A stretch of DNA of 64,000 bases from Aureobasidium sp. EXF-3400 (taxonomy: Eukaryota > Ascomycota > Dothideomycetes > Dothideales > Saccotheciaceae): contig SWBL01000047.1 in NCBI GenBank assembly GCA_024195585.1, forward strand, positions 140,723 through 204,722. Reading direction: 5' to 3'. Both the position numbers and the translations under genes were made by a program. How positions within the stretch are numbered: position 1 is the first letter of the stretch; each line of letters starts with the position of its first letter. Positions 24,802 to 42,506 of this stretch are shown in pieces. Below the pieces are notes generated by a model. That model did not search any database. It saw only the letters and a program-made list of their open reading frames with translations, and was not told the origin of the DNA.

Positions 24802-26352
24802 TCATAGCTCGCTCCTTACTGCGTCTGCGAACTGCTTGACCGCCCAGTCGAAGCTGTCCAAAGGCGCAGTAGCAAACGTCAGACGAAGCTTGATACCCTT
24901 AAGCTGGTCAGGCTCAGCTGCAAACCAACTTCCCTTGCTGATCACCACTCCTTTCTCCATGGAACGATTGTAGATCCTCTCCTCCAGGTCCAGCAGAGCA
25001 GTCTTCTCCTTCTCGATCGAGCACTCCGAATAAGACGAGCATGAGATACGAGGCGTCGGTGACTGAAGATGGAGCCAAAGGAACATGCCGGCTTCGGGCA
25101 CAACCCAAGTGAAGAGATCAGGTGGAAGGTACTTCTCGCATGCCGAAACCAAGGCATCTCGTCGTTGGCGGTATTGGTGCGACAAGAATGCGAGCCAGCG
25201 AATGAAGCCATCATGACCCCAGGTCACATCTAGCAGCTTGTACATGGCCACCTGAGAGAATCCAGAAGGAGCTACACTGCCGACTTCTGTGTAGTTCATG
25301 TACTTTTCGGCGATCTGAGAGCAACATGTCATCCAAGCACATCGGAGTCCAGGCGCGAGAATCTTTGATGTGGCATCCAGACGGACAACACGGCCGGAGA
25401 CGTCCATCGAGAGGTAGGACGGAGGCAGTTGTCGCAGGTACTCGTCCACTGGCATCGGCGAGTCTTCTCCGGACTCCAACCTGGAGTGTAGCTTCAGGAA
25501 GTAGTAAGGGTCGTCCTCGATGATGTATATGTCATGTTCCTCTGCGACCTGGTAGATCTTCCTCCGTCTCTCAGCAGATTGAGTGGCTCCTGTAGGGTTC
25601 TGACCGCAAGGGACAATGTACATGACAGAAGGCTTGCGTCCCTGAGCCGGATCCCAAGAGCGCAACTTGGCCTCCAGATCTTCTGGTATGAGACCCTGCC
25701 CATCCATCTTGATCCCCAAGATATTGATGCCCAGTGGTGTGACAGCTTCAATGGCCCCAGGGTACGAATATTCTTCAGTGATAATCCAATCTCCCCGGTC
25801 GCAGAACATACGGAACACAGTATCCATCGCCGATGTGGTACCACTCGTCAAACAAGTTTCCCAATCATCGTACGGCGGGTTGTGAATCATCTCAATGTGT
25901 TCAGTGATGAACCTCAACAACTGCGGCGATCCAGCTGCATACCCATAGTTCAAAGCAACCGCAAAGTCAAAATCGTCTTCTCCTCTCGTACACGGCATGA
26001 CCACAGCCTCATCAACAGGCGACCCTCTAGACTGCTTCCCAGAAAGCACCAACGAGTCCCAAGGAAAGTACTCTGGAATAGGCCGTCCAGCTCCCAAACT
26101 AATCTGCCGTTGAGGAATAATGGGAGCGCCATCGAGACCAGGTTTCACACTGCTCGCGGACGCTTTCAGGTTCGAGGGTAGTCTGTTGCGGCATTCGGTA
26201 CTGAGATGATGGTCCCAGTTCTTGGCTTTGGGTTTCGTGCCTGGTCGACACAGTTTGAAGAACTCGGAGGAGGTGAAGGGGGCAGGACCTGAGGGGAGAG
26301 GGTCGGATGTGCTCCGGTGTAAGGTATAGTCGGCAATTGCTTGGGATAACAT
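24802..26352 (-). CDS. Aromatic amino acid aminotransferase (Aro8/Aro9 type)
   Basis: Single-exon, 516 aa, class I/II PLP enzyme of fold type I. It would transfer the amino group of Phe, Tyr or Trp to a 2-oxo acid, giving phenylpyruvate, 4-hydroxyphenylpyruvate or indolepyruvate. Visible signatures: ISLGAGRPIPEYFPWDSL at the N-terminal substrate edge, TSGTTSAMD phosphate loop, CGQNPTG (Asn252), IIEDDPYYF with the PLP-ring Asp near 280, and DATSKILAPGLRCAW with Schiff-base Lys330. These fit the Aro8/alpha-aminoadipate-aminotransferase subgroup; 2-aminoadipate as substrate is the main alternative. It runs in the same direction as an Aro10-like decarboxylase 683 bp upstream, and next to a Zn2Cys6 gene, which favours a catabolic Aro9-like job. 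Two TCGGAGT heptamers lie in its promoter. Confidence 0.85.
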   Translation of the reverse strand: MLSQAIADYTLHRSTSDPLPSGPAPFTSSEFFKLCRPGTKPKAKNWDHHLSTECRNRLPSNLKASASSVKPGLDGAPIIPQRQISLGAGRPIPEYFPWDSLVLSGKQSRGSPVDEAVVMPCTRGEDDFDFAVALNYGYAAGSPQLLRFITEHIEMIHNPPYDDWETCLTSGTTSAMDTVFRMFCDRGDWIITEEYSYPGAIEAVTPLGINILGIKMDGQGLIPEDLEAKLRSWDPAQGRKPSVMYIVPCGQNPTGATQSAERRRKIYQVAEEHDIYIIEDDPYYFLKLHSRLESGEDSPMPVDEYLRQLPPSYLSMDVSGRVVRLDATSKILAPGLRCAWMTCCSQIAEKYMNYTEVGSVAPSGFSQVAMYKLLDVTWGHDGFIRWLAFLSHQYRQRRDALVSACEKYLPPDLFTWVVPEAGMFLWLHLQSPTPRISCSSYSECSIEKEKTALLDLEERIYNRSMEKGVVISKGSWFAAEPDQLKGIKLRLTFATAPLDSFDWAVKQFADAVRSEL

Positions 26353-27034
26353 TGCGGTGTCAATGGAATCTGAATTCGAACAAAAGAATAATTATATTCA
26401 AGAAGAAATCGTGGTACAGTAATTGATATTGTTCTGACAGAATTGAATCAAGTTTGTCAATTGGGAATGCTCCAAGTTTACTTGGAATAGAGTAAATGGC
26501 GGAGAAAGAGTAGTATAGATATATGTGACGAGCAGGTGGTGTAGTCGGACAATTCGGAGTAACAACGTTTTGGTGCTCCCTTCCTTCGGAGTATACTTTT
26601 ACGTTTAGCATTCGAACCCCCTTGCGTATCACGATTGCTCAAGGCACCGCGTGTGCAGATAAGAAGCAATCAGAAACCGTACCGGGGTGGCACGACTCAA
26701 AAGCAGAAATCCAATCCGATAAGGAAGTCGGAAGCCGACGTAACGCGGGTTGAATACGGCCTTAAGGAGACCACAACATCAAGAATTTAGGAATTGCTCT
26801 AGAACAAAGAAATGTATTCAGCGTGACTGTGTAGGCTTTGGTGGAAGAAGCACCGTGTCTTCCAAGAACTTGATAGATACATGTGGTACGAAACCGTTGG
26901 TATGTTCCGTGACGACGGTGCTGCGTGACACTATCAACGTATCTCCGTATGGAAATCGTACTTATAGCTGTTCTGAAACGTCGATTGGCTGATTTCTTAA
27001 TCATGCTGCATGTGTGCTGTAGTGTCCGCGATGC
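26353..27034. promoter_or_regulatory. Upstream region of the aminotransferase gene
   Basis: 682 bp between the aminotransferase start and the decarboxylase stop. Contains TCGGAGT at 26554-26560 and 26586-26592, both followed by A/TA, and a related TCGGAC at 26545-26550. Candidate sites for the clustered Zn2Cys6 regulator; no gene seen. Confidence 0.4.
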
Positions 27035-28780
27035 TCAATTCTCGGACGATTCACGAGCTTTCTGGTTGTTCAAAAGCTTCAACAACAGGCCCTGAGCATC
27101 TTCGCGCTCCATGAAAACCTCGAGCATTCTGACACCTTTCCCGTTCGTGAGTAGACCACATCCTATTGCTGCTTGTAGTTCTCTCCAAGTCCGTGCCGAG
27201 AACGTGTTCATTTCCACCTCGTCCTCGGTTGCTCCGAACATGTTGAGCGCTTGCAGATATCTCCAAGATGCAATATCGTTGTATGTCTGCTTGCGTCCGT
27301 GTATGACACGCTCGATAGTGTAGCCGTCGTTGTTGATGACCACAATGATGATATTTAACTTTTCTCTGATCATGGTGCTGATCTCTTGCACGGTCATTTG
27401 CAGACTTTCATCGCCAATAAATAGAACCACTCGGTTTTCGGAGGCATCTGTGCTGCCTGATCTTTTCCTCCATCTTTCAGAATCGCGCTGGGCTAGTGAT
27501 GCACCAAGGGTTGCAGGTAGCATGTAGCCGATACTCAACCACGTAACAGCCGTGAAATAGTAACTTCCGCTCGGGAGCACAAGATCACGAGTGCCGTGAG
27601 AGGCCGTACCAGTCTCGCCCATGACAATATCTCCAGATTTGAGAATAGGGTTAATGACACGGTAGAAGTCTTTTTGAGTGAGTGAGCCAGACGATTCGAC
27701 GGACGGGGTTACCTTAGATGGCTTCGGAGGGGCTTCGGGTTTTGAGATCTTGCTGTGGTCCAGTTGCTCCAATAACATTCCTATGAGCTTCTTGTTTGAA
27801 ACGTCACGAGTGATCTCAGTCCCGATTTTGACATGACGCTCGGAAAATGACAATGAGATTGCTTGCTTCGGGATGCTGGAAAACGAGCCAGTGTTGGTGC
27901 TGCTGTAGTGAGGACCAAAGACCAGAGCGAGATCTGCTGATTCAAAGTAGGTTTTTGCGCTTTCGCTGCCTAAGTCGGCATTATAGATACCTTGAAAGCT
28001 TTCAAGATGCTCATCTACCAAACCTTTGCCGAAGGGCGATGTCCACACAGGCCACCCGGTAGCCTTGACAAGCTCATTTATCTCGTCGAGGATGTCTAGA
28101 CATCTGCTCTCACCATCCACATATATCAAAGGGTTCTTGGCAGAATGCATCAGCTCAATAATGCGACCCGATACTTTCGACTCGTTGTCGCCATTTGAGA
28201 TCGAAGGCAAGGAGATCTTGGACTCTAGACCGGCCGCAGACACCTTCACATCCACCATGTCGGCCGGAAGTTGAATATACACTGGTCGGCTGTGGATCAG
28301 GGCCTGCTGCACAGTCACATCAAACTGCTCGGGAGCAGTACGAGGATCCAAGAGGTTTGTCTGTGCGATGGTCACATGTGTATGCATGGTTGCAAAGCGA
28401 TTGAAGTCACCGTCGGCGAATGTGTGGTGTACATTGGTACGAGCGTCTTGCGTAGCTCTGGCTGGGGTACCAACAATAGAAATGATAGGAGCCTTTTCCG
28501 CGTATGCACCAGCAATACCATTGACGGCACTGAGTTCTCCCACGCCAAAAGTGGTGATCAGGGCACTCACACCATGGATTCGAGCGTAGGCATCGGCAGC
28601 ATATGCAGAGTTCAATTCATTACAATTGCCAACCCAGTGCAAGCCTGCAGGCTCAACGAAGTCCAGCAAGCGAAGGTTGTAGTCGCCAGGGACTCCAAAG
28701 ACAGAGCGAATGCCAAGTTGATGGAGTCTTGCAAAAACGTAATCGGCGAGCGTGATCGTATCTTGCGATGCGGATGACAT
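27035..28780 (-). CDS. ThDP-dependent 2-oxo acid decarboxylase, Aro10/PDC-like
   Basis: Single-exon, 581 aa, with the three-domain layout of the pyruvate/indolepyruvate/phenylpyruvate decarboxylases. It should turn an aromatic 2-oxo acid into an aldehyde and CO2. Conserved parts: VFGVPGDYNLRLLDF, catalytic Glu55 in GNCNELN, the His118-His119 pair in VHHTFADGDF, and NNDGYTIE with Glu490. The Mg/ThDP-binding motif reads GDESLQMT (456-463) with NN at 483-484; the third residue is Glu where Gly (GDG) is normal. Substrate is inferred from neighbours: an aromatic aminotransferase downstream and a divergent Zn2Cys6 regulator 256 bp away. It lacks the intron found in the window's canonical PDC gene. 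Unusual pyruvate decarboxylase is the alternative. Confidence 0.82.
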   Translation of the reverse strand: MSSASQDTITLADYVFARLHQLGIRSVFGVPGDYNLRLLDFVEPAGLHWVGNCNELNSAYAADAYARIHGVSALITTFGVGELSAVNGIAGAYAEKAPIISIVGTPARATQDARTNVHHTFADGDFNRFATMHTHVTIAQTNLLDPRTAPEQFDVTVQQALIHSRPVYIQLPADMVDVKVSAAGLESKISLPSISNGDNESKVSGRIIELMHSAKNPLIYVDGESRCLDILDEINELVKATGWPVWTSPFGKGLVDEHLESFQGIYNADLGSESAKTYFESADLALVFGPHYSSTNTGSFSSIPKQAISLSFSERHVKIGTEITRDVSNKKLIGMLLEQLDHSKISKPEAPPKPSKVTPSVESSGSLTQKDFYRVINPILKSGDIVMGETGTASHGTRDLVLPSGSYYFTAVTWLSIGYMLPATLGASLAQRDSERWRKRSGSTDASENRVVLFIGDESLQMTVQEISTMIREKLNIIIVVINNDGYTIERVIHGRKQTYNDIASWRYLQALNMFGATEDEVEMNTFSARTWRELQAAIGCGLLTNGKGVRMLEVFMEREDAQGLLLKLLNNQKARESSEN

Positions 28781-29036
28781 TGTTAAGGTGGTTTCAGGTC
28801 CGATGGTCTAAAACGTGTGCTCGGAAACCATGATATGTCGTTGTCCTCGGAGTAAGCGGGAGCCAGCGGGGTAAGGGCAACCGCGGCTTGCAAGGCGTCT
28901 CCACACCCCTCAGATACTTTGCCAAGCCGCTCCTAGCCGAACTCGCCGAAGACTCCTATCGAATCGGAGTGATCTGGCAATTCTCTACTCCGACATACCA
29001 TAGCAGAAGGAAAATCACAATCCGCGCCAGGAAGCT
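28781..29036. promoter_or_regulatory. Divergent promoter, decarboxylase / Zn2Cys6 regulator
   Basis: 256 bp. Three copies of the heptamer TCGGAGT: 28847-28853 and 28964-28970 on the plus strand and 28987-28993 as ACTCCGA. The middle one ends an imperfect palindrome, ACTCC-9 nt-GGAGT (28952-28970). CGG triplets of this kind are the usual half-site of Zn2Cys6 proteins. Confidence 0.45.
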
Positions 29037-31097
29037 ATGCCACCTCGTGAGGCAGCCTGTGAGCCTTGTAGGAGGTCTAAGTTGGCCTGCGATCATGTCC
29101 GACCGGTGTGCACTCGATGCTTGGGTGCCAACAGGGCCGACGCCTGCGAGTATCGAATATCTCCCTTCAAAAGAAGACGAACAGATTTGGGACCTTCGCC
29201 TAGGACGAATATTTCACGGTACAAGATAGCAGAGATTCTACGACTTTGTGTGGTTGTTGATTGATCTTGTAGCAATGGAAGCCAGACTCGAGAATCCGAG
29301 CCACCACCAACAGCAGCAGCGACGCCAACCATTCGACCTTATCCAAACCCAGGTTTTCAAGGCTCGTTGAGTTCTGCTGCGATTTTCAGTCACATCTCTC
29401 CTCGACATCATGAACCGGGCGCTGCTCAACCAGAACCTGATACTGTACCAGCTGGAGTGTCCGTACCTGCATTGCTCGATAACGATGATATCGCTTGTAG
29501 ACAAGGAACGTCATTAATCAAGCTACTTCTTGAGGAGTACCCGTTGAGTACCCTCAAAGATCTAGTTTCGTTTTGGCTCGCAAAAGGCATCAGTCTCTCA
29601 CATGCCGAGTCTCTATTAGATTCGTGCATCGAAAGTATGGACGAAGCTCTAAACTCTGGACAGCCAACAGACAGCTGTATGGAATATTTGACTCGTAATT
29701 CGCAGAGTCCGTTACTCTTCGGTCCCGAAACAACTTTCGCTGCATACGTAGCGCAGTTTTCTGGTCACAATGCCCGTCTGGAGACCCTAGGTATCTTTCT
29801 ATCAGCTGTGGTCAGAGCCACGAACGATGTACCTTTCTTCCCAACACTTTACAAAACAGACGAGGATAAGTTCAGGCTACGAAAGTTGGCTACTCGGCTG
29901 AGCGACCACGCTCTGGAAGTCTGTCTATCGCTCGACTGCTTGAATGACCTTCAGCTTGCCTTCCAATACGAGAATTTTATCGTGCATACATTCGTCGACG
30001 GAGACCAGAGTTACAGCTCATGGCGAAGGCTTGGAGATGTTATCGCCTCCATGCTTGCTCTCGGCTACCACGAACGTGTCGAGACCCGATCCAGAATCCC
30101 AGACTTTGTGGTGGAACTACGGCAAAGTGCATTCGCACGCATATACACTGACGATAAGGAAGTCTCCATCTTTCTTGGTCGACCACCCCGACTGAGTCGA
30201 AGATTTTGCCATTTCCGAATACCAATCGCTTTGGACTCATTCGAGGCCAATGAGTCTGCTCCTGGTACTGAAGTTGTCGGACAAGCAAGTGAAATCAAGA
30301 TTGATTACAGAGCGGGATGTAGTTGGGCGGCTCTATGTGCGCTACTCAAGGAAGAGATATTGGAGTTGTTCATCGAGAAAAATCGAGAGCATTGCGTACA
30401 ACGAGCGAGTGTTATCTGGGCAAAAGCGGAAGCACAATGGAAACAGCTACCCACACACATGCGCTACGATGTTAGTTGTCTCAACGACTACAGAAGGAGC
30501 CCCTTCGAGCGCGACTTCCTGATTAGTGCTCGACTAGACCACATACACATCAGGTTTCTGTTGCGATTCATCCTGATCAATAGTCTGGCCCAGCCAGATG
30601 ACGAGATGATCCAAATCGCACATGAGATGCTCACATTGGTCGTTCAAGCTGTTCTTGCCCGTGACAGGCTTGCAAATTCTGGAAGTGGTCTCGTCTGGAA
30701 AGTTATCCTCTACGGCTTACCGGCCTCAGGTATCATACTACTCGCCATCTTGGAACAACGCAATCCTTACCACTTTGGTGGCCTATCGCGCGCAAAGGTC
30801 TTGCAGAACCTGAGGATTCTCGTAGCCGAGATACAGATTGGCGCACTATCACATCCAAGAGAGCCGAATTTTGCTTTGCTCACCAGAGCCGCGCAGACCA
30901 TTGAGAACTTCCTCGACTCTGAGGAAAGGCATGATCATCATCCGAATGGTCAAATCAGCGCTCATCACGATGCGGCTCCTGGACAAATGGGACCTTGGGC
31001 TTCGAATTTGAACCTGGAGGCTTGGGATTTTGATCTTGGGTTCTGGGAGAATCTTGCCGAGCATCCCTTCTTGTCGAATCTCGAGTTTCCGACATAA
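29037..31097 (+). CDS. Zn2Cys6 transcription factor, likely cluster regulator
   Basis: Exons 29037-29218 and 29273-31097 give 668 aa. The binuclear zinc cluster lies at the N-terminus: Cys8, 11, 18, 25, 28 and 37 (C-x2-C-x6-C-x6-C-x2-C-x8-C), followed by a basic KRRR patch. A fungal-specific TF (MHR) domain fills the middle, with GDVIASMLALGYHE and SIFLGRPPRLSRRFC as typical landmarks. Function is inferred from position: it diverges from an Aro10-like decarboxylase next to an aromatic aminotransferase, the gene pair that Zn2Cys6 protein Aro80 controls in yeast. It is shorter than Aro80 (~950 aa), so direct orthology is not claimed. TCGGAGT also occurs at 31141-31147 just behind the gene. Confidence 0.85.
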
Positions 31098-33593: not shown

Positions 33594-34972
33594 CTATCTG
33601 CTGTTCTCCTCCCACGTCGGACCGGTGCAGTTGAATCCAACAGAGGAAACATTGTCACACAAGTACTGGCTAGGAGCAGTATTGTTGACAGTGTCGACAA
33701 TGTCGATACCAATAATTTCTTGACCAGTGCAAGGAGATGCAGCCGAGCACTGAATAGCACCGACCACATCACTGACGGCGGTTCCGGTCCAATTCTGAAG
33801 GCGAATATCGTGGAGGTTAAACTTGCTGCTATCGCAGCCACCAGTCGCGCCATTATAAGAGGTACACTGAGTCACGGCATAGATACCAGTATTGTTGTAG
33901 AGAACAAAATCGGAGAACGTAATGTTGGCAGCATAACCCAGGCCACCACCACCGCCGTTGGGAGGATAACCAGTAGAAACTCCAGTCCCTAAGCAAGTTA
34001 GCAAGTGATTTTGTTGGGACGGCGCGATTTTACGAACAGGTCTTGACGTAGGCGCCATATCTCATGTTGTACGAGCGGATGTCACGAGCAGTGACATTTT
34101 CGATGATTTCGAAAGTGTTGTTGTATTGACCAATGCTGCCAATAGCGACACCAAGACCCATATAGAAGTCACAGTCCTCGATAAGGATGTTGGTGCTGTT
34201 GGCCTTCAAGGCGATAGAATCATCTCCGTTAGTGACATTCCAGCGGCGGAAGGTGATGTTGTTGGCGTATACAGTGTCGGCACCGTCAGTGTTCAGACTT
34301 GAAAAGTCAAAGCCAACAGGCTCGTTGCCAGTGCTGTTCACATAAATATCTTCCAGAAGAATGTTCTCGCTGTGAATGACGGTCATGGTCCACATCTGGG
34401 AGTCCACAAATCGGGTGCCCAAGAAGGTGCTATCCTTGGTTCCAGTAATGGTAATCTGGTGAGGTCTGCCAGGGCTACATCAAAATCAGTATGTCAATCG
34501 ACGATATAGCAAATGTGAGCACTTACTAGTTGTTTGTTCCATTGACAAAGGTATACCAAGTCTGTCCAGAGCCATTGAGAGTAGCGTATCCATGACCATC
34601 CCAGTTGATATTCTCTCCACCAAACAACCAAGCCGAAGATTGGTTCTGGTAACCAACAGGGAGGGAGTGGTTGAGCCAGTAAGGGATATTCGTGTCCCAA
34701 AGGAGTAAACCATTCAAGTCGACGTCAACATTCTTCAAACCAGTAGTGTTCATAACACTATGGATGTTGTAGGTTTCGTTGCGGAAGACAACTTTTCCTC
34801 GTGAGGGTGCCTCGTTACGGCCGCATTTTTCGAATGCCTCGACGATGGCGGGAGCAGAGTCACCGCCATTCGCACAGGGCTCGACAATGCAGACACGTTC
34901 GGGGATAGTGACGACTGTTTGGGCAATTGCAAGTGCTGGCACACTGAGTGCCGCGATGAGAGAGGCGTACAT
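33594..34972 (-). CDS. Secreted GH28 pectinase, exo-type
   Basis: Exons 34972-34527, 34474-34038 and 33988-33594 give 425 aa. A signal peptide (MYASLIAALSVPALAIAQ) marks secretion and there are many N-glycosylation sequons. GH28 right-handed beta-helix signatures: NTDG (210-213), GDDS with catalytic Asp pair (232-235) and RYGAYVK (287-293). The usual GHG motif, which carries the active-site His of polygalacturonases, is GLG here (255-257), in the context YMGLGVAIGSIGQY. That form recalls the exo-acting rhamnogalacturonan/galacturonan branch (RgxB-like) rather than an endo-polygalacturonase. Substrate is therefore uncertain between galacturonan and rhamnogalacturonan ends. Splicing restores the junction YVKT|WTGVSTG. 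Confidence 0.85.
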
Positions 34973-39327: not shown

Positions 39328-40087
39328 GTAGCTGTTCGGTGAATTGTATTAGTGGCAAAGGAGAGGCAAAAATCACTCGGTGAAGATCGGAGAGGGTGAA
39401 CAGACGTCTCTATCTTCTGCGAGGAAATGTGTTACTAGTAGACCAAACCTCCGAGTATTGTTGACGTTCGGAGGAAGAAATGTGGCCTGAGTGAGAAAAA
39501 AACAATCGTGATAGGGAAATCGTGACACGCGCTACTGCTGTTGGGACCAACGAACAAACATGCATATGAGCTGAAATGCACACCACGTTACGAGCCGAAA
39601 TCACATCCATACCTGTGGTGTCGCCAGTGTTAATGAACGCGTGGTGGCCAGAGGAAGGAGACGTTCGCAGGCTCGGGAGCGGCCGAAGCTAAGGCTTGAC
39701 TCGCTCAGTTTGGCGCTGGCCCAAGCTTCAACATGGTTTAGCACGATGTCATCAAGGTCCAACCTTTCTGTTATGTAGCGTCCTCCGAACAATGTCTGGC
39801 TGTGCAAATCAAATACTACGAGGGTGCTGTGGAAGATGAAAACGGAAAAGAGTGAGAAGGGTTGTGAGATGTGCGGATCCGGTCGCACTCTTGAGTAGGG
39901 CCGCAGAGAGGATGGCGAGGTTCTGGTAATGGGGTGACTTTTGCTGGTCGGGCCTACCCACGATGTTCCGGTTCGGCCCTGCATCGTCATACCTACTCGT
40001 TGTCGGGAAGGAGCTTGCTCCAAGGGTGTTCCAGGGAGCAGTTCAGCGGTTGGAGCTTCATGATTTCGTTCCACATCTAGCATTTGA

Positions 40088-40095
40088 AATATAAA
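40088..40095 (+). promoter_or_regulatory. TATA box of pyruvate decarboxylase
   Basis: AATATAAA about 83-90 bp before the ATG, in a long upstream region typical of a strongly regulated glycolytic-fermentative gene. Confidence 0.6.
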
Positions 40096-40177
40096 CCAAC
40101 CGAAGCTCCCGAACACAAAACCTCCTCTTCTCTTCTCATCCTATCCAAGATCCTACAACAATCACACCTACCCCGCC

Positions 40178-41961
40178 ATGGCTTCTCAAGACATCCGCAC
40201 CAACTCGCTCAAGAAGCCAATCACCATCACTGAGTATATCTTTGCTCGCATCAAGCAATGTGGTGTCACCTCTGTCCACGGTCTTCCTGGTGACTACAAC
40301 CTGTCTGCCCTCGACTACCTTGAGAAAGCTGGTCTGAAATGGGTCGGCAACTGCAACGAGCTCAACGCTGGTTACGCCGCTGATGGCTACGCCAGAATCA
40401 AGGGTTAGTCGACCGAGTTTCTCTCGTGATAGCATAGGCTAATTGTGTCCAAGGCATGGCCGCCCTTGTCACCACCTTCGGTGTTGGTGAGCTCTCTGCC
40501 ATGAACGCCATCGCCGGTGCCTACTCGGAATACGTCCCCATTGTTCACGTTGTCGGTATGCCCGCGTTGACGGCACAGAAAGATAAACTTATGCTCCATC
40601 ACACTCTCGGCAATGGCGACTACAATGTCTTCGTTGACATGTTCCGCCTTGTTTCCTGCGCCGTCGCCAACCTGAAAGACCCTAGCACTGCTGCCGATCA
40701 GATTGACCATGTCATTCGCGAGTGTTACCTCCAATCACGCCCCGTCTACATCGGTCTGCCTTGTGACATGGTCGAGGACAAGGTCGAGGGCGAGAGACTC
40801 GACCAGCCCATTGACTTGTCATACCCTCCCAACCCCGAGGAGCAAGAAGATTACGTCGTTGATGTTGTCTTGAAGTACCTACATGCAGCAAAGGACCCTA
40901 TCATTTTGGTCGATGGTTGTGCCATCCGCCACCGCGCTCAGAAGGAGACCCACGATTTGATCACCAAGTCCGGCCTGCCCACATTCGTCGCTCCTCTTGG
41001 TAAGGGGTGTGTTGACGAGACTCTTCCCAACTTCTGCGGTGTGTATGCTGGTGACGGTTCAGCCGAAGGTGTTCGCGACCGTGTCGAAAGCTCCGATCTT
41101 GTTCTCAGCATCGGCGCCATCAAGTCCGATTTCAATACTGGAGGCTTCACATATCGCCAGAGTCAATTGACTACCATCGACTTCCACTCTAATTTCATCC
41201 AAGTCCGTTACTCGCAATACCCTGGTATCCGCATGAACGGTGTCCTCCGCAAGGTCGTCGAAAAGATGGGCAAGCTGAACGTCAAGGAAGGCCCCAAGCC
41301 CGGCAATCACATAAGCAGCAAAGACAACACCCAGGTCATCACACAGAAGTACTTCTGGCCTCGTCTTGGCCAATGGCTGCGTGAGAACGACATTGTTATT
41401 GCTGAGACTGGTACCTCGGGCTTTGGTATGTCGGATGCTCACTTCCCTGCCAAGGTTCAACTCATCTCTCAGATCCTGTGGGGCTCCATCGGCTATGCTA
41501 CCGGTTCTGCTCAGGGTGCCTCATTGGCCGCCAAGGAGCTTGAGGAGGAGAAGGGCGAAAAACACCGCACTATTCTGTGCACTGGTGACGGTTCATTCCA
41601 ATTGACCGCCCAGGAGGTCTCAACCATGATCCGCCGCAAGCTGAAGCCCATCATCTTCCTCATCAACAACGATGGCTACACGATCGAGCGCATGATCCAC
41701 GGCATGGAAGCCGAATACAACGACATTCAGATGTGGAAATACCAGGATCTGGTTCCCGCTTTCGGCGCAAAGGAGGGCGAGTACAAGACCTACACGATCA
41801 AGACGCGTGACGAGCTCGACCAGCTCATGGCAGACGACAACTTCAACGCTGCTCCTTACCTGCAGTTCGTCGAGCTATTCATGCCCAAGGACGACGCTCC
41901 TGAAGCGCTCAAGCTCTCTGCTTCGGCAGCCGAACGCAGAAACAAAAAGGCCGAGGCCTAG
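40178..41961 (+). CDS. PDC1: Pyruvate decarboxylase
   Basis: Exons 40178-40403 and 40454-41961 give 577 aa. It converts pyruvate to acetaldehyde and CO2 in the cytosol using ThDP and Mg2+. The catalytic Glu61 (GNCNELN), the HHTLGNGDY His pair, the intact GDGSFQLT cofactor motif and [13 protein letters not shown] are all present. Codon use is strongly C-ending, like the fructosyltransferase gene, which suggests high expression. The single intron follows the codon for GYARIKG. Compared with the cluster decarboxylase at 27-29 kb, this copy has canonical motifs and is the likely housekeeping or fermentative enzyme. Confidence 0.93.
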
Positions 41962-42506
41962 AAGATATCGGGACCGCGAACAACTTGGACTTCTCATGGG
42001 AATGTCATCAACGAATAACTTAATTGACTTGTGCTCTTATAATGATGTAAATAGACGTTTGGCGTTTTAGTTTTCAGAATCCACTTTTCTTAATTCTTGA
42101 CTCGTCTCGTTGTCCTTGACTCTGTGATTCGTGCCAGTGATCCAGATATCTCCGCCTAGGATTCAGACTCTTTGATGGCATATACCTTGCTCAATAGGCT
42201 CAAAACATCTGGCAGGGATGGCTTTTTTGGCAGAAGCTCCTCTATATTGGATTGACATGGGTGTGTTGTATGTTGTGGAGTTCTGAGTCCCGGTTCAACT
42301 CTGCAGACAGCTTGGTGGCTTAGCTGCTGCCAGACCATGAATTCTGAGCACGAAGCGTCTATTGCGCCTCGCCAACAGCCGGTGTGTTTGTGTTAAGCAT
42401 GGCCATTTCCCGCCTTCCAGAGAAGTGTGCGCGACACCCGTCGTCGCGATCGATCGGGTTGTTGTGCGTCCAAGAGATTGTACACGTCTGGTTCGGCTCT
42501 CATCTT
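41962..42506. other. Convergent 3' region, PDC / MED9
   Basis: 545 bp between gene ends; nothing recognised. Confidence 0.5.

What the first reader, a model, noticed from the sequence alone, without database searches (positions are those of the whole stretch)
24802..31097. Candidate Ehrlich-pathway gene cluster: aminotransferase, decarboxylase and Zn2Cys6 regulator
Seen: an Aro8/Aro9-type PLP aminotransferase, an Aro10/PDC-like ThDP decarboxylase and a Zn2Cys6 protein are adjacent, the last two divergent. Known: in Saccharomyces cerevisiae Aro80 (Zn2Cys6) activates ARO9 and ARO10, which lie apart in the genome. Inferred: here the same pathway, aromatic amino acid to 2-oxo acid to aldehyde (toward 2-phenylethanol, tryptophol or indole-acetic acid), is packed into one locus with its own regulator. 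No dehydrogenase or transporter is next to it, so the last step must be encoded elsewhere.
Basis: partly seen in the sequence, partly recalled or inferred. Interest (0 to 1): 0.75.

Follow-up and report, generated by a model that had tools for sequence, protein, structure and literature searches.

The report
Fungal amino-acid-to-aldehyde gene cluster
A black yeast keeps the genes for two successive steps of amino acid breakdown side by side with what looks like their own switch, and the enzymes appear to belong to families other than the best-known ones.

Summary
An aminotransferase (AT), a thiamine-diphosphate (ThDP) decarboxylase and a Zn2Cys6 regulator lie side by side, the last two divergent; the regulator's zinc-cluster exon (29037-29218) was added here. 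The assembly matches Aureobasidium sp. EXF-3400 and holds two subgenomes; the second carries the same trio.

The Ehrlich reading is partly supported. The AT is not the aromatic/aminoadipate AroH, which is another gene here, and the decarboxylase is not a ScPDC1 orthologue. Contig sharing links this regulator family to the decarboxylase in 12 of 20 other named species, and to the AT in 5 of 5. AT-linked and decarboxylase-linked regulators fall into two subclades; the window's is of the decarboxylase type. AT and decarboxylase share a contig outside this assembly only in A. uvarum.

The divergent promoter holds the only near-identical 55-bp block between 19.4 and 58.1 kb, with an Aro80-type CCG-N7-CCG and one of five TCGGAGTR sites shared with the AT promoter. 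Most likely one regulator co-controls transamination and decarboxylation of a (probably aromatic) 2-oxo acid. Substrate, inducer and Aro80/Aro10 orthology are untested. The window's decarboxylase has a private Gly-to-Glu change in its ThDP motif and may be inactive.

The parts
24802..26352 (-). PLP aminotransferase of the AroH/Aro8 superfamily, separate clade
   Evidence: PF00155; best solved relative 6S8W AfAroH, 470.7 bits; tree; PLP lysine and carboxylate-binding arginine kept
26353..27034 (.). 682-bp intergenic stretch taken as the AT promoter, two TCGGAGTA sites
26554..26561 (+). TCGGAGTA site 1 of the AT promoter
   Evidence: TCGGAGTG in the homeolog
26586..26593 (+). TCGGAGTA site 2 of the AT promoter
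   Evidence: kept in the homeolog
27035..28780 (-). ThDP-dependent 2-oxo acid decarboxylase, own clade of the PDC/KDC superfamily
   Evidence: PF02776/PF00205/PF02775; tree; residues
27407..27409 (-). codon of residue 458, Glu (GAA) where relatives have the Gly of the GDG cofactor motif
28781..29036 (.). divergent decarboxylase/regulator promoter, 256 bp, three TCGGAGTR sites
28919..28973 (.). 55-bp block with at most 1 mismatch between homeologs; holds CCG-N7-CCG at 28927 and TCGGAGTG at 28964
28847..28854 (+). TCGGAGTA site
   Evidence: kept in the homeolog
28964..28971 (+). TCGGAGTG half of the inverted pair
28986..28993 (-). TCGGAGTA half of the inverted pair
29037..29218 (+). regulator exon 1 with the Zn2Cys6 cluster
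29219..29272 (+). 54-bp intron (predicted, GT-AG, frame kept)
29273..31097 (+). regulator exon 2; whole protein 668 aa

Best explanation
This is a compact catabolic gene cluster for the first two Ehrlich-type steps: the AT turns an amino acid into its 2-oxo acid, and the decarboxylase turns the 2-oxo acid into an aldehyde. The divergently placed Zn2Cys6 protein is most likely the pathway-specific regulator. It would bind conserved sites in the decarboxylase/regulator promoter (acting on the decarboxylase and on its own gene) and the shared TCGGAGTR sites in the AT promoter. An aromatic amino acid (tryptophan, tyrosine or phenylalanine) is the likeliest substrate, but this is not shown. Shown here: gene content, the separate clades of the two enzymes, family-level linkage to this regulator family, the conserved promoter block. 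Inferred: DNA binding, regulation, substrate, fate of the aldehyde.
For: Domains. The trio in both subgenomes. Regulator and decarboxylase on a contig of identical length in 14 pairs of the 120 x 120 listed hits, against a mean of 0.075 when lengths are shifted: 12 of the 20 other named species present in both lists, plus A. pullulans and an unnamed contig; in A. wentii the locus tags are consecutive, MW887_004061/004062. Regulator and AT: 5 such pairs against a mean of 0.02, 5 of the 5 species in both lists. AT and decarboxylase: A. uvarum. The AT clade excludes AroH and this genome's AroH-type genes (100/100); the decarboxylase clade excludes ScPDC1 and two own paralogues. Catalytic residues kept. 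TCGGAGTR: 8 in the window against 3.31 expected, 0 of 100 shuffles as many; 5 of the 8 in the two promoters, all five kept in the homeolog. Conserved 55-bp block. A. fumigatus AroH takes Trp, Tyr and Phe (PMC6279937, passages).
Against: No expression, binding or enzyme data. The regulator subclades divide by partner, so relatives do not show one regulator serving both enzymes. Shared-word test over all words: 173 of 20,000 random pairs do as well for 7-mers, 88 for 8-mers, 4,770 for 6-mers, so moderate. Genome-wide, direct pairs of the site (7 places) do not exceed the reversed-pattern control (10); inverted pairs (3 places) hardly exceed it (2). The window's decarboxylase copy may be inactive.
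Confidence: 0.57

Rival explanations
1. Two independently regulated units that merely lie together: the regulator serves only the decarboxylase, and the AT is a bystander with its own control.
For: The window's regulator belongs to the decarboxylase-linked subclade while AT-linked regulators form another. AT and decarboxylase share a contig of equal length only in A. uvarum, and in Neoarthrinium they do not. CCG-N7-CCG is absent from the AT promoter.
Against: TCGGAGTR occurs twice in the AT promoter of both homeologs (expected 0.026-0.027). The trio is kept in both subgenomes.
Confidence: 0.28
2. A specialised or non-aromatic pathway: the AT and decarboxylase act on another amino acid (branched-chain, aliphatic or an unusual one).
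For: The decarboxylase scores equally to a branched-chain 2-oxo acid decarboxylase (395.3 bits) and ScPDC1 (394.4). The F393 position of ScPDC1 is mostly H or Y in this clade. Two listed AT homologues carry the name SwnA (P0138, P0199).
Against: No PKS, NRPS or tailoring gene among the ORFs scanned: 5 and 9, trio included. AT kinship to broad aromatic aminotransferases.
Confidence: 0.25
3. Ordinary housekeeping AroH/Aro8 and PDC genes that are neighbours by chance.
For: Source records name the decarboxylase 'pyruvate decarboxylase'.
Against: Both enzymes fall outside the clades of AfAroH and ScPDC1, and AroH-type (C76/C82) and other PDC-type genes (C155/C86) exist elsewhere in the genome. Linkage to the regulator family recurs.
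Confidence: 0.05

Closest known systems
S. cerevisiae Aro80-ARO9-ARO10 regulon
   Same: Aminotransferase, 2-oxo acid decarboxylase and Zn2Cys6 protein; CCG-N7-CCG in the decarboxylase/regulator promoter
   Different: Regulator 668 aa against 950 aa for Aro80 (PMC9142190, passages). The site shared by both promoters here is TCGGAGTR, not four CCG repeats spaced by 7 bp. Orthology to Aro80 and Aro10 not tested.
A. fumigatus AroH (PDB 6S8W)
   Same: Full-length similarity, 470.7 bits; same catalytic lysine and carboxylate arginine
   Different: Separate clade (100/100); AfAroH groups with this genome's C76/C82 genes, weaker support 88/66
Fungal pyruvate decarboxylase (ScPDC1); N. crassa CFP as indole-3-pyruvate decarboxylase
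   Same: Three ThDP domains; D28, E51, H114/H115, E477 kept; CFP (NCU02193) acts in the indolepyruvate route (PMC5805262, passages)
   Different: Own clade on a branch of 1.65; ETGTA[SA][HY]G is usual where ScPDC1 has ETGTSAFG. CFP sequence not compared.
Bacterial indolepyruvate decarboxylase (TIGR03393)
   Same: Best NCBIfam match, 388 bits
   Different: Far below the family cut-off of 946 bits
Aspergillus oryzae PpdA (phenylpyruvate decarboxylase)
   Same: Aspergillus 2-oxo acid decarboxylase active on an amino-substituted phenylalanine route in E. coli (PMC4863162, passages)
   Different: Sequence not obtained, so membership of this clade is unknown

Membership tests
Ehrlich-pathway locus of the Aro80/ARO9/ARO10 kind | aminotransferase of the Aro8/Aro9 superfamily | tested here: met
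   PF00155 and matches to 6S8W, 6HNB, 4JE5 and 6HND/6HNV
Ehrlich-pathway locus of the Aro80/ARO9/ARO10 kind | ThDP 2-oxo acid decarboxylase with catalytic residues | tested here: met
   but the window copy has Glu for Gly in the GDG motif
Ehrlich-pathway locus of the Aro80/ARO9/ARO10 kind | decarboxylase orthologous to Aro10 | not tested
   no Aro10 sequence was obtained
Ehrlich-pathway locus of the Aro80/ARO9/ARO10 kind | Zn2Cys6 regulator orthologous to Aro80 | not tested
   Zn2Cys6 met; no Aro80 sequence obtained; lengths differ, 668 against 950 aa
Ehrlich-pathway locus of the Aro80/ARO9/ARO10 kind | CCG repeats spaced by 7 bp in both enzyme promoters | tested here: inconclusive
   one conserved CCG-N7-CCG in the decarboxylase/regulator promoter, none in the AT promoter
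Ehrlich-pathway locus of the Aro80/ARO9/ARO10 kind | induction by aromatic amino acids | not testable with these tools
   no expression data
AroH/Aro8 orthologue | falls with AfAroH in a tree | tested here: not met
pyruvate decarboxylase (ScPDC1) orthologue | falls with ScPDC1; substrate motif TSAFG | tested here: not met
   quick tree, tool warned of long branches
indolepyruvate decarboxylase TIGR03393 | score over the curated cut-off (946) | tested here: not met
   388 bits

The most novel reading that the evidence does not exclude
A fungal regulator family has two ancient branches, each hard-wired beside one step of the same route: one beside the aminotransferase, the other beside a decarboxylase clade with a His/Tyr pocket residue. 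Aureobasidium has brought both enzymes under a single, decarboxylase-type regulator that reads a TCGGAGTR site.
Probability: 0.33. Interest if true: 0.6.

Novelty: new variant of a known kind. Interest (0 to 1): 0.45.

Why it matters
How filamentous fungi control Ehrlich-type breakdown of amino acids (fusel alcohols, tryptophol, indole-acetic acid) is, to my knowledge, less worked out than in yeast. This locus offers a concrete regulator, two target promoters with named sites, and enzyme families that can be tested at once. One Aureobasidium pullulans strain is reported to make indole-acetic acid (PMC4252105, passages). If the split of regulators by partner is real, it shows how one pathway can be controlled step by step in some fungi and as a unit in others.

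Tried and rejected
Rejected: the AT as AroH. The decarboxylase as a ScPDC1 orthologue. The 55-bp promoter block as coding: an open frame crosses it, but the window copy has no ATG in that frame, and the single difference between homeologs changes Leu to Pro rather than being silent. The site at C56:147627 as a further target: no obvious gene start beside it, and no second place in the genome matched, so it is not kept in both subgenomes. Direct pairs of the site as a regulon finder: no excess over control. The contig of 25,903/25,904 bases as evidence for AT+decarboxylase linkage: within chance. tRNA and Rfam scans gave nothing (whole window, 20-36 kb). NCBIfam: among the families shown, none over its cut-off for the five proteins given.

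Unanswered: genome-wide density of the site, everted pairs, copies of the C106 intron, and a pattern for the promoter block (the machine was busy). No fungal genome other than the window's own assembly could be read, so linkage in relatives rests on equal contig lengths and, once, on locus tags.

Species were counted by eye from the lists. The odds of the main reading were lowered from 0.60 to 0.57, of the novel case from 0.35 to 0.33, and the first rival raised from 0.25 to 0.28, because the second AT+decarboxylase contig fell away.
Full report
What is there. The window is C47:140723-204722 of a 53.4-Mb, 717-contig fungal assembly. A close homologue of the decarboxylase, P0013, is named Aureobasidium sp. 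EXF-3400 with a longest contig of 146,343 bases, the exact length of contig C106 of this assembly. The assembly therefore most likely is that strain (inference). Contig C106 carries a syntenic copy of window 14.1-63.0 kb at 65-84% DNA identity per block, with one inverted segment (window 39865-41964). That resembles the highly heterozygous diploid hybrids described for A. melanogenum (PMC9535773, passages only; neither EXF-3400 nor EXF-12298 is named in its text).

Genes. The AT (24802-26352) and the decarboxylase (27035-28780) are uninterrupted ORFs on the minus strand; the regulator is divergent from the decarboxylase. The listed regulator ORF lacks the zinc cluster. Exon 1 (29037-29218), a 54-bp intron and exon 2 give a 668-aa protein with PF00172. 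All three genes are on C106: AT 94%, regulator 95-97%, decarboxylase 83-87% identical by aligned piece, so the decarboxylase diverges faster. The C106 decarboxylase holds an extra 267-bp stretch bounded by GT and AG (C106:112571-112837); the 581-aa record P0013 implies that it is treated as an intron.

Aminotransferase. The best solved relative is 6S8W, 470.7 bits, which is A. fumigatus AroH (PMC9290597, passages). AroH uses aromatic amino acids, kynurenine and aminoadipate (PMC6279937, passages). In a 50-row tree (42 of 120 listed homologues plus own and PDB rows) the window AT and all 42 lie on one side of a branch supported 100/100, while AfAroH groups with this genome's C76/C82 genes (88/66) on the other. 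The PLP lysine, the substrate-carboxylate arginine and the active-site tyrosine are kept. So it is a relative of AroH, not its orthologue.

Decarboxylase. In a 51-row tree (47 of 120 listed homologues) the window protein and 47 others are separated (SH-aLRT 100) from ScPDC1, the window's second ThDP gene and C155; the tree is of the quick kind and the tool warned of long branches. Residues for ThDP chemistry are kept. The ScPDC1 motif TSAFG is usually TA[SA][HY]G in the clade: at the F393 position 27 rows have H, 21 Y, 2 F and 1 V (all 51 rows). The best curated family, TIGR03393, scores 388 against a cut-off of 946. The window copy has Glu where 50 of 51 rows have Gly in the GDG motif. Of the 120 listed homologues 109 read GDGS, one GEGS, and 10 gave no match to the search expression. 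The window protein differs from its closest listed relative P0001 at two residues, 458 and 496. The C106 copy has the usual motif. The change is likely to harm cofactor binding (inference), unless it is an assembly error.

Relatives. Fungal genomes could not be read, so linkage was inferred from equal 'longest contig' values among the 120 best hits of each gene. Exact equality: 14 regulator-decarboxylase pairs (mean 0.075, largest 1, when lengths are shifted by 13 to 212 bases), 5 regulator-AT pairs (mean 0.02, largest 1), 1 AT-decarboxylase pair (mean 0.135, largest 3). Regulator and decarboxylase: A. pullulans, an unnamed 60,768-base contig, and 12 of the 20 other named species present in both lists. 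The eight misses are A. avenaceus, A. hancockii, A. pseudonomiae, A. heteromorphus, P. canescens, P. paradoxum, Penicillium sp. DV-2018c and Mariannaea; P. salamii has further regulator hits on other contigs. A miss may only mean that different strains represent the clusters. In A. wentii the tags are consecutive (MW887_004061 and 004062). Regulator and AT: Lophiotrema, Dactylonectria (a second regulator hit lies elsewhere), Dothistroma, Annulohypoxylon moriforme and C. karsti, 5 of 5 species in both lists. AT and decarboxylase: A. uvarum only, where both rows name the species; in Neoarthrinium the contigs differ. An unnamed pair of 25,903 and 25,904 bases is within chance, although its AT is sister to the Aureobasidium AT (99/96). 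Many contigs are megabase-sized, so sharing a contig is not adjacency. The lists hold only the best 120 hits, so absence of an AT from Eurotiales, or of the decarboxylase from the AT-linked species, is not shown.

Regulator tree. In a 38-row tree (37 of 120 listed homologues) all five AT-linked regulators fall in one group of 12 (99), and the 13 decarboxylase-linked ones included (of 14), with the window's, in the other group of 26 (99). Both groups contain Dothideomycetes and Sordariomycetes (class names recalled), which suggests an ancient duplication (quick method, SH-aLRT only, midpoint root, two long branches). None of the five AT-linked species appears in the decarboxylase list and none of the 12 named decarboxylase-linked species in the AT list (read by eye), so no relative yet shows both kinds of link side by side. 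The split by partner is the most interesting outcome, and it weakens the simple idea that one regulator has always served both enzymes.

Promoters. TCGGAGTR occurs 8 times in the window (3.31 expected, 0 of 100 shuffles as many); two sites lie in the AT promoter and three in the divergent promoter. The homeolog keeps all five. With background density from 181 kb of this genome outside the locus, the AT promoter expects 0.026 and has 2; the divergent promoter expects 0.010 and has 3. The site was chosen from these sequences, so the fairer test searches all words: 173 of 20,000 random segment pairs reach the observed 7-mer sharing and 88 of 20,000 the 8-mer sharing, while 6-mers are not unusual (4,770 of 20,000). 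The inverted pair occurs at 3 places in the genome, two of them this promoter in both subgenomes (control 2 forward, 2 reverse). Direct pairs occur at 7 places, two of them the AT promoter in both subgenomes (control 9 forward, 1 reverse).

Independent footprint. Of 36,111 aligned 55-column stretches (plus-strand alignments), those with at most one mismatch form 15 blocks; the only one between 19.4 and 58.1 kb is 28919-28973 in the divergent promoter. It contains CCGCTCCTAGCCG (CCG-N7-CCG), a third CCG six bases on, and TCGGAGTG. [quoted passage not shown] The AT promoter has no CCG-N7-CCG.

Reading. The best account is a two-step, Ehrlich-type catabolic cluster under its own regulator. It may work like the Aro80 system but is not filed as a member of it: the enzymes are not orthologues of AroH or ScPDC1, and Aro10 and Aro80 orthology are untested. 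In 10 literature searches of an open-licence library, the listings and the passages that I opened did not describe such a cluster in Aureobasidium; most subscription papers are not held, so this does not show that it is unpublished.

Noticed in passing
27407-27409: The window's decarboxylase has Glu at residue 458 where 50 of 51 compared rows have Gly in the GDG cofactor motif; the homeolog on C106 is normal. Either an inactive allele in a hybrid or an assembly error.
   Followed up: partly
L011:8571-8837 (C106:112571-112837): The C106 decarboxylase holds an extra 267-bp GT-AG stretch with internal inverted repeats (seen by eye), absent from the window copy; possibly a recently gained intron or introner-like element. 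The copy-number search did not complete.
   Followed up: partly
40223-41961: A second, distantly related ThDP decarboxylase gene (39% identical) lies about 11.4 kb away, in a segment inverted relative to the homeologous contig.
   Followed up: partly
L013:1444-2931 (C106:125444-126931): The homeolog of the second ThDP gene reads GEG and NEG where the window copy reads GDG and NDG, so each subgenome may carry one altered ThDP gene.
   Followed up: no
28919-28973 and C106:114261-114416: The conserved promoter block lies inside an open frame that forms a 51-codon upstream ORF with an ATG in the C106 copy only.
   Followed up: partly
33594-34058: A 154-aa ORF that resembles part of a secreted polygalacturonase (recalled resemblance, not searched).
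   Followed up: no
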